Source: Streptomyces sp. HNM0574
Lineage (GTDB): Bacteria; Actinomycetota; Actinomycetes; Streptomycetales; Streptomycetaceae
Assembly: GCF_012726235.1 (NCBI RefSeq)
Contig: NZ_JAASAH010000008.1
Location: 62,001 to 126,000 of the forward strand
DNA length: 64,000 nt
Direction: 5' to 3'
Positions 50,596 through 55,342 of the stretch are shown here, in pieces. How positions within the stretch are numbered: the first letter of the stretch is position 1; every line of letters begins with the position of its first letter. Below the pieces are notes generated by a model. That model worked only from the letters and a program-made list of their open reading frames with translations, did no database searches and was not told where the DNA came from. Position numbers and translations under genes: made by a program.

Positions 50596-51402
50596 CTAGC
50601 TGTAGAGGGCAGCCGCTTCGTACAGGGCCTTCACTCCCTGCCCGACCACGGGTGATCCGTGACCGAAACAGAGCGTTTCCGCCTCCAGTCCGGAGAGACG
50701 GCCCAGTGACGCGACCGCACGGGCACGGTGCGTGTTGAAGGGCCCGAGGATCACGCCGGAGGACGAGGCGCCCTCCTCGGCGGCGGCACGGCCGGCATCC
50801 TCCTGTGCCGTGCCGTGGAACGCGGCGACGGCCGCGTCCGTCCGCGCCACCGTGTCACCGGTGAACAGCGTGCGGTGCGCGGGCAGATGGAGGGCGATGC
50901 TGCCGTCCGTGTGCCCCGGAACGTGCACCACCCAGGCACCGCCGCCGAAGTCGAGCACGTCCCCGTCCGTCAGCTCCTGGTCGACGGGGCAGGCGGGCGC
51001 CGAGGGCAGGACGGGATGGTCGGCGCTCAGCCCGTAGGCGGCCGTCTGGTGCTCGAAGAGCGTCCGCTCCCACTCCCGCGCCTCGGAGAAGTCCGGTGCC
51101 GGCGGGGCGACTTCGCCCCGGACGACGGGCGCGTCCGCGCGGTGTGCCAGCACGGGCGCACGCAGCCGTGCCGCCAGTTCGGCGGCCGATCCCGCGTGGT
51201 CCTCGTGGAAGTGGGTGAGGACGATGCGCCGCAGGGCGCCCGGGGCGTGCCCGAGCGAACGGATCGCCCGCTCGATCTGCTCGCCGGAGCCCGGAGGGCC
51301 GGTGTCGATCAGGGTGAGCGCGTCACCGTCACGCCACAGGTACGCCTGCCCGACCGGGAAACGGAGCATGTGCAGCCGCTCGTGGATTTCGACGCATTCC
51401 AT
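50596..51402 (-). CDS. MBL-fold metallo-hydrolase
   Basis: This 268-residue metallo-beta-lactamase-fold protein has the metal motif VLTHFHEDHAGSAAEL (HxHxDH), plus VVHVPGHTDGSIALHL, LFTGDTVAR and the terminal CFGHGSP. It is of the glyoxalase-II-like class that acts on thioesters or small lactones. It lies 65 bp downstream of the lutC stop but has its own terminator. The substrate cannot be deduced. Confidence 0.9.
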   Translation of the reverse strand: MECVEIHERLHMLRFPVGQAYLWRDGDALTLIDTGPPGSGEQIERAIRSLGHAPGALRRIVLTHFHEDHAGSAAELAARLRAPVLAHRADAPVVRGEVAPPAPDFSEAREWERTLFEHQTAAYGLSADHPVLPSAPACPVDQELTDGDVLDFGGGAWVVHVPGHTDGSIALHLPAHRTLFTGDTVARTDAAVAAFHGTAQEDAGRAAAEEGASSSGVILGPFNTHRARAVASLGRLSGLEAETLCFGHGSPVVGQGVKALYEAAALYS

Positions 51403-51467
51403 GCGCGCAAGCTAAGCCGCTCTCCCAGACGGACGGAGCGCCTTACGCCCGTGGCGTACTCGGCCGC

Positions 51468-52118
51468 TCAGTGCTCGCCCGCCAGGACGACCTCCAAGGT
51501 GCGCGGGCCGTGCACGCCCTCCACCCGGTCGAGTTCGATGTCGCTGGTGGCGGACGGGCCGGAGATCCAGGTCTGCGGCCGTGCCGGGTCCAGCCGCTCC
51601 AGCGCCTCCGGCACGGCCGCGACCACCTGCGAGGGCACCCGCACCACGCAGATGTGGTGGTCCGGTACGAGCGTGATCCGCCGTCGTCCCTGCCCGGGGC
51701 CGGCGTCCAGCACGATGGTGCCGGTCTCGGCGACGGCCACGGCGCAGCCCGTGACGACGCTGTCGACCGTGTCCAGCCGGTGAGGTGTGAGGCCCGGCGC
51801 GTCCGCGAGCCGCTCGATCCCGTCCGGCTCCGGCAGCCACTCGGCGGGCAGCCCGGAAGGGACGACGACGCTCCGCGCTCCGCGGGCCCGCAGCAGCTCG
51901 CCGACCATCCTCGGCACCGCGGCGGCCTCGCAACGGTGCACCACCGCGCGGTAGTCGGCGAGGTTCTCCGCGAGCAGACCCGCGATCTGCGCCTGCGTCC
52001 GCGCCCCGTGGGCGCGCGCGTACTCCCGTGGCACGGGGGTGTCCTCCGGCCCCTCCCCGCGCGGTACATCGCTCAGGGCGCGGCGCACGCGGGCCAGGAC
52101 GACGTCGCGGCTGCTCAT
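51468..52118 (-). CDS. lutC: Lactate utilisation protein C (LUD domain)
   Basis: This 216-residue LUD-domain (DUF162/YkgG) protein is the third subunit of the LutABC L-lactate oxidation complex. Conserved stretches are ARSVVVPSGLPAEWL, DSVVTGCAVAVAETGTIVLDAG and the C-terminal SDIELDRVEGVHGPRTLEVVL, the typical LutC ending. The ATG overlaps the lutB stop by 4 bp and has GGAGAGG 7 nt upstream. It is needed for growth on lactate in other bacteria, although its exact chemistry is not established. Confidence 0.93.
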   Translation of the reverse strand: MSSRDVVLARVRRALSDVPRGEGPEDTPVPREYARAHGARTQAQIAGLLAENLADYRAVVHRCEAAAVPRMVGELLRARGARSVVVPSGLPAEWLPEPDGIERLADAPGLTPHRLDTVDSVVTGCAVAVAETGTIVLDAGPGQGRRRITLVPDHHICVVRVPSQVVAAVPEALERLDPARPQTWISGPSATSDIELDRVEGVHGPRTLEVVLAGEH

Positions 52119-53632
52119 TCCGTCCCCTCTCCGTCTCGCCCGTCCGGGCCTTGCGGGGTGCCGTTCGCGCCCCGCGTGCGGCGCCACCAGTCGCGGAACG
52201 TCTCGGCGGGCAGGCTCGGCAGGTCGCGGCTCTGCGACCAGGCGCGGGCCGGGCCCGGAAGCGGGAGGCGGCGCGGCTGGAACCGGCGCACGCGGGTGGC
52301 CAGCCGCTGGCCGCGCCCGAGCGCCAGCGGGTGCTCGAACGCCCAGCGCGCGGCGCGCATCGCCGCGCGCTCCGCCGCGTGCCCCTTCGCGGGCCGGATG
52401 GTGGTCTTCTGCCCGCGCACCATGACCTCCCCGCCCTCCACGACCCGCTGTCGCAGATGGACGAGGACCTCCGGGATGTCGATGGCGACGGGACAGACCT
52501 CGTAGCAGGCACCGCAGAGCGACGAGGCGTACGGCAGCGAGGCGTCCAGTTCCGTTCCCGTGCCGCGCAGTTGGGGCGTCAGGATCGCGCCGATCGGACC
52601 GGGGTAGGGCGAGCCGTACGCGTGTCCGCCGGCCCGCTCGTACACGGGGCAGACGTTGAGGCAGGCCGAGCAGCGGATGCAGCGCAGCGCCTGCCGTCCC
52701 ACCGTGTCGGAGAGCGCGTCGGTCCGCCCGTTGTCCAGCAGCACCAGATGGAAGGTGCGGGGTCCGTCCCCGTCGGTGGTGCCCGTCCAGGTGGAGGTGT
52801 ACGGGTTCATCCGTTCAGCGGTGGAGGAGCGGGGGAGTAGCTGGAGGAAGACCTCCAGGTCCCGCCAGGTGGGCACCACCTTCTCGATGCCGACGACGGA
52901 GATCAGCGTCTCGGGCAGCGTCAGACACATCCGGCCGTTGCCCTCGGACTCGACGACGACGAGGGTGCCGCTCTCGGCGACCATGAAGTTCGCCCCGGAG
53001 ACGCCGACTTTGGCGTTGAGGAACTTCTCCCGCAGATGGAGCCGCGCGGCCTCGGCCAGTTCGGCGGGATCGTCACTCAGTCCGGCCGGCGCCGGGAGTC
53101 CCCAATCAGCCATCCGCGCACGGAAGATGTCCCGGATCTGGTCCCGGTTGCGGTGGATCGCCGGGACGAGGATGTGGGACGGAAGGTCGTCGCCCAGCTG
53201 CACGATCAACTCGGCCAGGTCCGTCTCGTACGCGGTGATCCCGGCGCCTGCCAGAGCCTCGTTGAGGCCGGTCTCCTGGGTGGCCATCGACTTGACCTTG
53301 ACCACCTCGCGCTCACCGGTCTCCCGCACCAGCCGGGTCACGATCCGGTTCGCCTCGTCGGCGTCGGCCGCCCAGTGCACGTGCCCGCCGGCGGCGGTGA
53401 CGGCCTCCTCCAACTGCACGAGATAGTGGTCGAGATGGCGCAGTGTGCGGTTCTTGACGGCCGCGCCGGCCTCGCGGAGTGCGGACCAGTCGTCCAGTTC
53501 GGCGACGGCGCGCTCCCGTTTGGCGCGGATGGTGTGCGTGGCGTGCCGTAGGTTGCCCCGCAGCCGCATGTCCCGGGTGGACGCTTCGGCGGCCTCGGGG
53601 AACGCGGGCATGCCCAGGTACGTGCCGCTCAC
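52115..53632 (-). CDS. lutB: Lactate utilisation Fe-S protein B
   Basis: This 505-residue protein has an N-terminal LUD domain (VVKVKSMATQETGLNEALAG; GVSGANFMVAESGTLVVVE) and a C-terminal ferredoxin-like module with CIRCSACLNVCPVY and CGACYEVCPVAI, which bind two 4Fe-4S clusters. It should pass electrons from lactate oxidation. GTG 53632 overlaps the lutA stop (GTGA), giving strict coupling. The last about 60 residues are basic and low-complexity. It lies in a three-gene operon whose promoter is near 54.4 kb. Confidence 0.94.
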   Translation of the reverse strand: MSGTYLGMPAFPEAAEASTRDMRLRGNLRHATHTIRAKRERAVAELDDWSALREAGAAVKNRTLRHLDHYLVQLEEAVTAAGGHVHWAADADEANRIVTRLVRETGEREVVKVKSMATQETGLNEALAGAGITAYETDLAELIVQLGDDLPSHILVPAIHRNRDQIRDIFRARMADWGLPAPAGLSDDPAELAEAARLHLREKFLNAKVGVSGANFMVAESGTLVVVESEGNGRMCLTLPETLISVVGIEKVVPTWRDLEVFLQLLPRSSTAERMNPYTSTWTGTTDGDGPRTFHLVLLDNGRTDALSDTVGRQALRCIRCSACLNVCPVYERAGGHAYGSPYPGPIGAILTPQLRGTGTELDASLPYASSLCGACYEVCPVAIDIPEVLVHLRQRVVEGGEVMVRGQKTTIRPAKGHAAERAAMRAARWAFEHPLALGRGQRLATRVRRFQPRRLPLPGPARAWSQSRDLPSLPAETFRDWWRRTRGANGTPQGPDGRDGEGTE

Positions 53633-54345
53633 AGCGGTGCCTCCTTCGTCCCGGCGAGGATCTCGGCGATGTGCACGGGCCGTACCGCCGAGCCCCTGCG
53701 GGCGAGGGTGCCGCCGATGTGCATCAGGCAGGAGTTGTCGACCGTGCACACCGCTTCGGCGTCGGTCTCCTCGATGTGCCGTGCCTTGTCGGCGCCCATC
53801 GCGGCCGAGACGGCGGGGTTCTTGACGGCGAAGGTGCCGCCGAAACCGCAGCACTCCTCCTGCCCCTCCAGCGGTTTCAGCCGCAGCCCCTCGACGTGCT
53901 CCAGCAGCCTGTGCGGACGCTCGCCCAGCCCGAGCATCCGCAGCCCGTGACAGGTCGGGTGGTAGGTCACCGTGTGCGGGTAGTACGCGCCGACGTCCTC
54001 CACACCCAGCACGTCCACCAGGAACTCCGTCAGTTCGTAGGTCCGCGCCACGGCGTCGGCCGTTCCCGGGCCGTCGATGCGCGGGTACTGGTCGCGCACC
54101 ATGGCCGCGCAGGAGCCCGAGGGCACGATCACGTAGTCGTACGCGCGGAAGGTCTCCGCGTAGCGGCGGGCGAGGGGTTCGGCCTCGGTGCGGTAGCCGG
54201 TGTTGAACTGCGGCTGGCCACAGCAGGACTGCTCCTGGGGGAAGTCCACCTGGACGCCCAGCCGTTCGAGGAGCGTGACGACGGCCTGCCCCGTGCGGGG
54301 GTAGAGCGTGTCGTTGACGCAGGTGACGAAGAGAGCTACCCGCAC
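53629..54345 (-). CDS. lutA: Lactate utilisation protein A (CCG-domain, GlcF-like)
   Basis: This 238-residue protein of the heterodisulfide-reductase-type CCG family is the first subunit of LutABC. It carries two CCG motifs, SCCGQPQFNTGY and ECCGFGGTFAVKNP, which probably ligate an Fe-S cluster. GTG 54345 has AAAGGATGG 4-8 nt upstream, and the family starts at RVALFVTCVNDTLYP. A candidate promoter, CTGCAC (54410-54415) and CAGTAT (54386-54391) with an 18-bp gap, lies just upstream. No LldR-type regulator is adjacent. Confidence 0.94.
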   Translation of the reverse strand: MRVALFVTCVNDTLYPRTGQAVVTLLERLGVQVDFPQEQSCCGQPQFNTGYRTEAEPLARRYAETFRAYDYVIVPSGSCAAMVRDQYPRIDGPGTADAVARTYELTEFLVDVLGVEDVGAYYPHTVTYHPTCHGLRMLGLGERPHRLLEHVEGLRLKPLEGQEECCGFGGTFAVKNPAVSAAMGADKARHIEETDAEAVCTVDNSCLMHIGGTLARRGSAVRPVHIAEILAGTKEAPL

Positions 54346-54415: not shown

Positions 54416-54549
54416 TAGTCGTCGCGGACTGGCATGTCGGGAGCCGGAGGGGCGACGGTTTCGGCGCACTGTCCGAACCGGCCCCGGAGAGCGGGCCGTT
54501 GAGGCAGAGGCACGTTGGCGGTGCCGCACTGTGCCCCGGAAACGCGGAA

Positions 54550-54583
54550 GCGCCGCCTCCCCGTGGGACGGGGGAGACGGCGC
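54550..54583 (-). terminator. Hairpin after the 19-aa ORF
   Basis: A 13-bp stem (GCGCCGTCTCCCC on the minus strand, one G-T pair) with an 8-nt loop begins about 17 nt after the ORF stop. No T-tract follows. Confidence 0.65.
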
Positions 54584-54599
54584 CTTCAGCGGCCGTGCG

Positions 54600-54659
54600 T
54601 CAGACGAGCCAGCCCACGAAGTGGACGACGCCTGCGAGCACGTTGGTGATGAGGTCCAT
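54600..54659 (-). CDS. 19-residue hydrophobic peptide
   Basis: This tiny frame encodes MDLITNVLAGVVHFVGWLV, one transmembrane-length hydrophobic helix with a single acidic residue near the start. Evidence for translation is a strong AAGGAG 10-14 nt before the ATG and isolation from other genes. A candidate promoter (54765-54794) lies upstream and a terminator (54550-54583) downstream. I do not recognise the peptide. Size and character recall small membrane peptides, including type I toxins such as Ibs and membrane-complex accessory peptides. No function can be claimed. It lies between lutA and a decayed ACR3 gene. Confidence 0.55.
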   Translation of the reverse strand: MDLITNVLAGVVHFVGWLV

Positions 54660-54764
54660 GGTGGTGCTTCTCCTTGCGTTTCTTTGGGACATCACTCCGG
54701 TCCGCCGTGGGACTGGGGTCCGGAGGCGCCTGCACGGTCTGCAGCCCGTCGCTTGCGCACTGTA

Positions 54765-54794
54765 AGCATCATGCGACGAACGGCAGTTGTGCAA
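54765..54794 (-). promoter_or_regulatory. Candidate promoter of the 19-aa ORF
   Basis: TTGCAC-N18-GATGCT on the minus strand precedes the 19-aa ORF by about 105 nt. The leader would be about 95 nt long. The octamer TGCACAAC is shared with the lutA promoter. Confidence 0.35.
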
Positions 54795-54876
54795 CGAAAT
54801 CCGGAGCGACCACGCGTTCGGGCGAACAGCCGCTCCCGTGTTCGTCTGTTCCCGACATTCGGAGCAGGTACCGCCG

Positions 54877-55342
54877 TCACGTCCGGTGCGCGAACTTCCG
54901 GCGCCAGGCGAGCGATACGTACACCAGGGCCACCAGGAGGGGCACCTCGATGAGCGGTCCGACGACGCCGGAGAGCGCCTGGCCGCTCGTGACGCCGAAG
55001 GCGGCGATGGCGAGTTCGGAGTTGTTCCCGCAGCCGTGAAGGCGAGGGTCGTGCTGCGGTCGTACGGGAGGCCGATGCCCTTGCCGAGGGCGAAGGTGCC
55101 GAACTGCATGAGCGCGAAGTGCGCCAGCGGCGGCAGCGCGATACGGGCGACGTCCCAGGGCTGCGAGGTGATCGTCTTCCCCTGGAGGGCGAAGAGCAGC
55201 ACGATCGTGAACAGCAGTCCGTACAGACCGAACGGGCCGATCCGGGGCAGGAATCGGTTCTGTTCGCGGCCGAGCCTCCGCTCCCCGACGCGGCGGGTGA
55301 GGAAGCCGGCGAGCAGCGGGACGCCGAGGAAGGCGAGCACGT
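54877..55342 (-). pseudogene. Truncated and frameshifted ACR3 arsenite efflux gene
   Basis: These are remains of an ACR3-family arsenite permease. The C-terminal half is readable: VLAFLGVPLLAGFLTRRVGE, then FLPRIGPFGLYGLLFTIVLL and RSTTLAFTAAG. It then changes frame near 55020 to NNSELAIAAFGVTSGQALSG and PLIEVPLLVALVYVSL. The frame change falls inside the conserved AGNNFELAIA motif, and a few residues there are missing as well. The whole N-terminal half, about 200 residues in intact ACR3, is absent. No arsC or arsR gene is nearby. It is a dead gene unless the assembly is wrong. Confidence 0.85.

What the first reader, a model, noticed from the sequence alone, without database searches (positions are those of the whole stretch)
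54550..54794. 19-residue hydrophobic ORF with its own promoter, ribosome-binding site and terminator
On the minus strand a complete miniature expression unit is visible: TTGCAC-N18-GATGCT, about 95 nt of leader, AAGGAG, a 20-codon frame (MDLITNVLAGVVHFVGWLV) and a 13-bp hairpin 17 nt after the stop. It is isolated between lutA and a decayed gene block. Such short genes are usually missed by annotation. Possibilities include a small membrane regulator, a type I toxin or a leader peptide.
Basis: partly seen in the sequence, partly recalled or inferred. Interest (0 to 1): 0.6.

Follow-up and report, generated by a model that had tools for sequence, protein, structure and literature searches.

The report
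Conserved 19-residue membrane-type peptide gene
A tiny gene for a 19-residue helical, membrane-type peptide, with its own promoter, structured RNA leader and terminator, is kept in roughly a quarter to a third of the Streptomyces genomes sampled, matches no known family tested, and has an unknown job.

Summary
The frame at window 54600-54659 (-) is a real gene, not a chance ORF. Full-length relatives occur in 63 of 199 same-genus genomes. Of 178 distinct units collected, 175 are exactly ATG + 18 codons + stop; T5, A9 and G16 are invariant. A search using only leader RNA found 47 genomes with a genuine leader; the peptide follows in all 47.

lutA follows directly in only 3 of 178 units, so it is unlikely to be a lut leader peptide.

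Conserved columns fit an amphipathic alpha-helix. Best reading: a stand-alone, RNA-regulated membrane peptide. A dual-function RNA (RNAIII/psm-mec-like) and a type I toxin remain open; the antisense strand shows no promoter signal above shuffles. Two 20-aa relatives match no Pfam, NCBIfam or PADLOC family at cut-off, and Rfam has no match. Transcription, translation, targets and phenotype are untested.

The parts
54600..54659 (-). 19-codon ORF plus stop, MDLITNVLAGVVHFVGWLV*
   Evidence: Read directly; 178 distinct relatives, T5, A9, G16 invariant; 47 of 47 peptide-blind leaders carry it
54670..54675 (-). Shine-Dalgarno AAGGAG, 10 nt before ATG
   Evidence: Read directly; AGGAG in 151 of 178 units, some SD-like word in 175 of 178
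54765..54770 (-). -10 element GATGCT (conserved block GATGCTTAC)
   Evidence: Conserved GAT..TTAC block; best-scoring sense promoter lies at -84 to -81 from ATG in 64 of 177 units (leader lengths differ)
54789..54794 (-). -35 element TTGCAC, 18-nt spacer
   Evidence: Read directly; TTGC-type hexamers 18 nt before the -10 are the commonest class in relatives
54815..54851 (-). Upstream conserved element: GAACA, CGAACA N10 TGTTCG, CGAACG; presumed regulator site
   Evidence: Conserved in the alignment; CGAACA-N10-TGTTCG has two perfect sites in this genome, the other inside a coding region as I read it
54734..54749 (-). Leader hairpin 1: ACGG(G.A)C-UGCA-G..CCGU, inside an outer GCGC/GCGC stem 54758-54755 with 54729-54726
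   Evidence: Changes on both sides at 4 of 5 pairs, covariation score 0.262 against 0.086 shuffled, 0/500; formed in the minimum-energy fold of the window transcript; CGGNCTGCAGNCCG occurs at one place in the genome
54695..54725 (-). Leader hairpin 2: CUCCGG ... CCGGAG with GUCCCAC (54713-54707) in the loop
   Evidence: Fold of the window transcript; similar stems in folds of the long leaders L040, L077, L127
54685..54690 (-). GUCCCA motif in the leader just upstream of the SD
   Evidence: GTCCC in 177 of 178 leaders of 140 nt, 0.21 per leader expected from base-shuffled leaders
54546..54587 (-). Terminator hairpin with GUCCCA (54569-54564) in its loop
   Evidence: Stem; GTCCC within 90 nt after the stop in 173 of 178 units, 0.26 expected from shuffles; terminator-loop copy unpaired with probability 0.65-1.0 in 11 of 11 folds printed

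Best explanation
It is a stand-alone gene, normally one copy per genome, for a 19-residue amphipathic-helical peptide that acts at or in the cytoplasmic membrane. Shown in silico: the gene is conserved; the product is hydrophobic with one small/polar face (N2, T5, N/D6, A9, G10, H13, G16, W17); the mRNA carries a covarying 5' hairpin, a GUCCC motif in the leader and another exposed in the terminator loop. Inferred: transcription is switched by a regulator at the upstream inverted repeat; the leader hairpin and the GUCCC motifs control translation or decay of the mRNA, probably by pairing with a partner RNA that carries UGGGAC; the peptide inserts in the membrane and modulates a membrane process or a partner protein. 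It most likely acts in trans, because its neighbouring genes change between clades while the unit does not.
For: Full-length rows in 63 of 199 same-genus genomes and 99 of 394 family genomes in four genera, after discounting two genomes with weak partial rows from the 101 reported; one of the 99 (L135) is degenerate. Of 178 distinct units 175 have the exact frame; 47 of 47 peptide-blind leaders carry it. At codons 3, 4, 8, 15, 18 and 19 the second base is T in 126 of 126 distinct ORFs while the first base at codons 3, 4 and 15 takes three or four letters: hydrophobicity is kept. Helical moment at 100 degrees 0.368 against 0.145 (sd 0.062) for permuted columns, 0 of 200 as high; 5 of 102 distinct peptides have any K or R. 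Hairpin covariation. GUCCC in leader and after the stop; 45 of the 59 GTCCC hairpin registers found in the flanking loci scanned were assigned to the unit. The inverted placement is one supported clade, and placements need 9 changes on the tree if 15 unassigned rows are left out, 18 if they count as a group.
Against: No transcript, ribosome footprint or peptide has been shown. Mean dN/dS is only 0.51, and frame +1 gives a lower pN/pS than the true frame. Most sampled genomes lack the gene and 7 of 27 empty sites show remnants, so it is dispensable. Hairpin 1 appears in the minimum-energy fold of only 5 of 11 single sequences; 22 of 140 pair cells are unpaired, and the commonest version (68 of 177 units) does not pair at the outermost position. 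The leader GUCCC motif is predicted mostly paired in 3 of 11 folds. Membrane location is inferred from composition alone. No partner RNA or protein was identified.
Confidence: 0.55

Rival explanations
1. Dual-function RNA: besides encoding the peptide, the transcript regulates other mRNAs by pairing its exposed UCCC loops with G-rich Shine-Dalgarno regions, in the manner of S. aureus RNAIII (delta-hemolysin) or psm-mec RNA.
For: GUCCC is kept in leader and after the stop and unpaired in the terminator loop in 11 of 11 folds printed; accessible UCCC motifs in hairpins are described as a possible general signature of RNAs that control translation initiation (PMC3861533, passages); psm-mec is a peptide-gene RNA that inhibits agrA translation (PMC3617227, abstract and outline).
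Against: No target identified; the motif could equally be where this mRNA is itself regulated. The leader copy is not always predicted accessible.
Confidence: 0.25
2. Type I toxin: a membrane-damaging peptide whose mRNA is silenced by an antisense or trans RNA antitoxin.
For: Length and hydrophobicity like known type I toxins (recalled: Ibs, Fst); structured leader; repeated motif in leader and terminator loop resembling par_pAD1 (recalled); losses.
Against: Antisense promoter scores around leader and start are below shuffled controls (5.88 against 7.15, while the sense region scores 7.77 against 6.77). In one search the best antisense site fell at one position in 16 of 177 units and at four adjacent positions in 42 of 177 (sense: 64 of 177), which I put down to relatedness. 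The only multi-copy genome looks like an assembly artefact. Almost no positive charge.
Confidence: 0.2
3. Secreted signal: the conserved C-terminal HFVGWLV is released as a hydrophobic pheromone-type peptide.
For: C-terminal residues are highly conserved (H13 173, G16 178, W17 170, L18 177 of 178).
Against: N-terminal T5 and A9 are just as conserved; no basic N-terminal export signal; no receptor or exporter gene is common to the different neighbourhoods, though an ABC transporter gene adjoins many units.
Confidence: 0.08
4. Leader peptide or attenuator of the downstream lut operon.
For: lutA follows directly on the same strand in the window, L134 and L128; it lies about 1.6 kb on, same strand, in 11 further units and is near the unit on the replicon of L281. 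Two carriers outside the genus (L127, L128) have this neighbourhood, so it may be ancestral.
Against: Terminator right after the frame; in the 11 a convergent MFS gene stands between; in the large clades the next gene is an ABC transporter, an unidentified gene (F19) or a subtilase.
Confidence: 0.04

Closest known systems
S. aureus RNAIII / psm-mec RNA (dual-function peptide-coding RNAs)
   Same: Transcript with its own promoter and terminator; encodes a 20-odd-residue amphipathic helical peptide (recalled); UCCC motifs in loops, here in the terminator loop.
   Different: No detectable sequence kinship (best NCBIfam row PSM alpha, E 0.087, 12.6 bits against a cut-off of 30); almost no lysines; no trans target shown; relatives found only in one family in the genomes searched.
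Type I toxin peptides (Ibs/Sib, Fst/RNAII, TisB/IstR; recalled)
   Same: Tiny hydrophobic peptide, strong RBS, structured mRNA, own promoter and terminator.
   Different: No antisense promoter signal; single copy; toxicity untested.
Small membrane proteins that tune larger membrane complexes (e.g. CydX, KdpF, MgtS; recalled)
   Same: One short hydrophobic helix with a conserved small-residue face.
   Different: Only 19 residues, no constant partner operon, and conserved RNA elements.

Membership tests
Type I toxin-antitoxin | Short hydrophobic membrane-type peptide | tested here: met
   19 aa, mean GRAVY 1.59 over 102 distinct peptides, amphipathic helix pattern
Type I toxin-antitoxin | Antisense RNA antitoxin encoded with it | tested here: inconclusive
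   No antisense promoter signal above shuffles around leader and start; other sigma factors and a trans-encoded antitoxin were not covered
Type I toxin-antitoxin | Overproduction of the peptide stops growth | not testable with these tools
   Needs expression
Dual-function RNA of the RNAIII/psm-mec type | Encodes a short amphipathic peptide | tested here: met
   by sequence only
Dual-function RNA of the RNAIII/psm-mec type | Accessible UCCC motifs in loops | tested here: met
   Terminator loop in 11 of 11 folds; leader copy above 0.5 unpaired in 8 of 11; prediction only
Dual-function RNA of the RNAIII/psm-mec type | Pairs with and represses other mRNAs | not testable with these tools
   Needs RNA interactome or reporter data
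Phenol-soluble modulins | Score above the curated family cut-off | tested here: not met
   12.6 bits against 30 for one natural 20-aa relative, no row for the other; 19-mers are too short for the tool
Leader peptide of an attenuated operon | Same gene directly downstream in relatives | tested here: not met
   lutA directly downstream in 3 of 178 units; other genes in other clades
Known Rfam RNA families | Gathering score reached | tested here: not met
   No match in the window or in 10 relatives' loci; permissive search of the window stretch gave two weak rows

The most novel reading that the evidence does not exclude
A Streptomyces counterpart of RNAIII: one small transcript that both encodes an amphipathic membrane peptide and, through its UCCC loops, controls the translation of other genes; my nine paper searches showed no such actinobacterial case, though they covered only open-licence papers.
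Probability: 0.25. Interest if true: 0.8.

Novelty: new variant of a known kind. Interest (0 to 1): 0.6.

Why it matters
Streptomyces annotation tends to miss genes of this size; this one is kept under strict residue and RNA-structure constraint across much of the genus, so it presumably does something. A conserved peptide together with conserved UCCC loops would bring peptide-coding regulatory RNAs, known from staphylococci, into the main antibiotic-producing genus, which lacks Hfq (recalled). The relatives listed make deletion and tagging feasible in common laboratory species such as S. griseus (L255).

Tried and rejected
Chance ORF: rejected. I raised that rival from 0.02 to 0.04. Mobile element: considered because one intergenic place holds the unit in both orientations; the inverted state is one supported clade and placements need 9 changes (15 unassigned rows left out) or 18 (with them) on a quick tree, so mostly vertical inheritance with losses. 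CTGCAG as a DNA palindrome or a kissing loop: CTTCGG, CAGCGG and ATACGT break the self-complementary six-mer while the stem is kept, but CCGCGG and ATGCAT keep it, so the hairpin fits better without excluding a palindrome role. Triple copy in G362 (L126): near-perfect inverted repeats, taken as an assembly artefact; a copy from the same contig (L196) is still among the 178. Shared regulon by the upstream repeat: the one other perfect site lies inside a coding region. Structure prediction not run: the peptide is below the tool's minimum length. Mean dN/dS did not separate the true frame from frame +1. Control against the hairpin: sliding the partner by -3 to +1 drops the score to 0.026 or less, but +2 and +3, with fewer pairs counted, keep 0.142 and 0.193. 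Promoter scan: averaged by position, the sense scores peak elsewhere (+34), because leaders differ in length. Papers: nine full-text searches listed no paper on this peptide as far as titles and abstract starts show; S. griseus, S. coelicolor and comparative RNA-seq papers were looked at by term only, one also by outline and abstract. Moody et al. mention four of 58 conserved sRNAs that might encode a protein; the table was not available, so one of them could be this unit.

Rows dropped: six of 34 distinct hairpin words were left out (from L032, L033, L131, L132, L133, L196: a different hairpin type, off-register, or the artefact contig); L135 was left out of the hairpin and promoter counts. 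L082, L083 (not relatives), L108's artefact copy and the weak class-level loci L122-L125 were left out of the unit set. G019, one of the 63 genomes, was not read.

Full report
Check of the observation. A DNA search found one copy in the genome.

It is a real gene. Searching the 19 residues in 199 same-genus genomes gave full-length rows in 63 (69 genomes at E<=10, the weakest six being chance-like); 62 of the 63 were read and have ATG and stop. A profile search in 394 family genomes reported 101, of which I discount two with weak partial rows; three of the remaining 99 lie outside the genus, each in a different genus, and one (L135) has lost start and stop. In 197 class-level genomes the six good rows were all of the same genus; four more are weak and partial. 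A scan of named genomes reported 192 relatives and returned 80: 79 titled Streptomyces and one Microtetraspora; that the window's genus is Streptomyces is inferred from these titles. From 211 units I kept 178 distinct: 175 have ATG, 18 codons and stop; two have one extra in-frame codon (L139, L140); one is L135. T5, A9 and G16 are invariant in 178; L18 is kept in 177, H13 in 173, L8 in 172, W17 in 170. AGGAG precedes the start in 151 of 178.

Because peptide searches favour intact frames, I searched the leader RNA alone in the same 199 genomes. 49 genomes matched, against 3 matches of the reversed control. A check read the 30 loci returned: 28 have the intact frame, and the two without (G035, G090) are taken as chance. 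The 19 other genomes all match next to the peptide hit. So the frame is present in 47 of 47. In 40 genomes without the peptide, nine had the bare 14-base hairpin word (seven reversed-control matches), and none of the nine looks like a unit, so absence is real there.

Coding evidence. Average dN/dS is 0.51 and frame +1 gives a lower pN/pS, so this ratio alone is not decisive. The codon pattern is telling: at codons 3, 4, 8, 15, 18 and 19 the second base is T in 126 of 126 distinct ORFs, and in 125 at codon 11, while the first base at codons 3, 4, 11 and 15 takes three or four letters. I, L, V and F replace each other and little else does. Positions 2, 5, 6, 9, 10, 13, 16 and 17 lie within one 140-degree sector of a helix. 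The helical moment at 100 degrees is 0.368 against 0.145 (sd 0.062) for permuted columns, 0 of 200 as high, and 100 is the best angle tried. The product is thus constrained as an amphipathic, strongly hydrophobic alpha-helix; membrane location is inferred from this.

RNA features. The leader begins with a hairpin ACGG(G.A)C-UGCA-G..CCGU. On 28 of 34 distinct versions, 4 of 5 pairs show changes on both sides, 84.3% of cells pair (74.7% shuffled), and the covariation score is 0.262 against 0.086 (0 of 500 shuffles). Examples are C-G to A-U at the loop-closing pair and G-C to C-G, A-U or U-A in the stem; the loop may be UGCA, UUCG, CGCG, AGCG or UACG. Against it: 22 of 140 cells are unpaired, partners slid by +2 or +3 keep scores of 0.142 and 0.193 on fewer pairs, related sequences make shuffles too kind, and only 5 of 11 single-sequence folds show the hairpin (L089, L041, L054, L040, L127). 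GUCCC is in 177 of 178 leaders and within 90 nt after the stop in 173 of 178, where base shuffles give 0.21 per leader and 0.26. In 11 folds the terminator-loop copy is unpaired with probability 0.65-1.0; at least one leader copy exceeds 0.5 in 8 of 11 and none does in L035, L036 and L067. Of 59 GTCCC hairpin registers in the flanking loci scanned, 45 were assigned to the unit. Rfam has no match at gathering level.

Promoter and upstream element. The GAT..TTAC block and a TTGC-type hexamer 18 nt before it recur; the sense region scores above shuffles (7.77 against 6.77). Upstream lies CGAACA-N10-TGTTCG flanked by further GAAC words. In this genome the repeat has one other perfect site, inside a coding region, and the hairpin word CGGNCTGCAGNCCG occurs at one place. 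These suggest control dedicated to this gene; the regulator is unknown.

Surroundings. The usual places are between a YceG-like (MltG) gene and an ABC transporter near a flavoprotein gene; between a carboxylase-like gene and a subtilase next to an AMP-binding enzyme; or between the flavoprotein gene and a convergent MFS gene. lutA lies directly downstream in the window, L134 and L128, and about 1.6 kb downstream behind the MFS gene in 11 more of 178 units; most loci hold only about 2 kb on that side, so this is a lower bound. Both L127 and L128 come from outside the genus and have the lut neighbourhood, so it may be the ancestral one. The unit lies in both orientations between the YceG-like gene and the ABC gene; the inverted state is one supported clade, and in it the last codons of the ABC gene are read from the unit's upstream element. 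Of 27 sites without the unit where the ABC gene was also found, seven carry remnants by eye. Two units lie on large Streptomyces replicons filed as plasmids; one gene table (570 features) lists nothing at the place, the other has one feature in all. The unit has thus been kept as a block in changing company and lost often.

Mechanism. Shown by sequence: conservation, helix pattern, hairpin, motif, independence of any one neighbour. Inferred: membrane insertion; control by the leader hairpin and by RNA pairing at GUCCC; a trans role. A type I toxin with a cis antitoxin would predict an antisense promoter; antisense scores lie below shuffles (5.88 against 7.15), which argues against that but not against an antitoxin encoded elsewhere. 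The closest known design is RNAIII/psm-mec: a short amphipathic peptide in an RNA with UCCC loops (PMC3861533, passages; PMC3617227, abstract and outline). I found no sequence kinship, so this is a likeness in working, not membership.

Novelty. Two natural 20-residue relatives match no Pfam or PADLOC family and only a sub-threshold PSM row in NCBIfam. Nine full-text searches listed no paper on it. Moody et al. 2013 report four of 58 conserved Streptomyces sRNAs that may encode a protein, in a table I could not read (PMC3765725, passages), so a trace of it may be in print. That the carboxylase/subtilase place matches SCO2444-SCO2446 of S. coelicolor is my recollection and untested.

Noticed in passing
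window 54880-55340 (-): Broken transporter gene upstream of the unit; one of two pieces scores as the Sodium Bile acid symporter family (PF01758, E 1.3e-8), resembling an ACR3-type arsenite transporter (recalled).
   Followed up: partly
L036, L046, L067 (upstream element of the unit): The C-terminal codons and stop of an ABC transporter gene are read from the unit's upstream element in the clade with the inverted unit.
   Followed up: partly
L176, L183-L187, L168: Genomes without the gene keep scraps of it (a GAACGTGTGATCGT-like word at the ABC gene's end; terminator plus upstream repeat in L168), a sign of loss.
   Followed up: partly
L039, L077, L079, L127, L128, L134 and others: lut genes recur near the unit in one neighbourhood, including two carriers outside the genus; a functional link to lactate use is untested.
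   Followed up: partly
L126 5947-6832 (contig also in L196): Three copies in near-perfect inverted repeats in a Streptomyces tardus contig; probably an assembly artefact.
   Followed up: partly
L245: Record titled Microtetraspora glauca NRRL B-3735 carries a Streptomyces-type unit, and same-genus handle G076 has a contig of the same length (346160): probably a mislabelled Streptomyces.
   Followed up: no
window 50599-54345 (-): lutA-like (CCG), lutB-like (LUD, Fer4_8, LutB_C) and lutC-like (LUD) genes followed by a metallo-beta-lactamase-fold gene.
   Followed up: no
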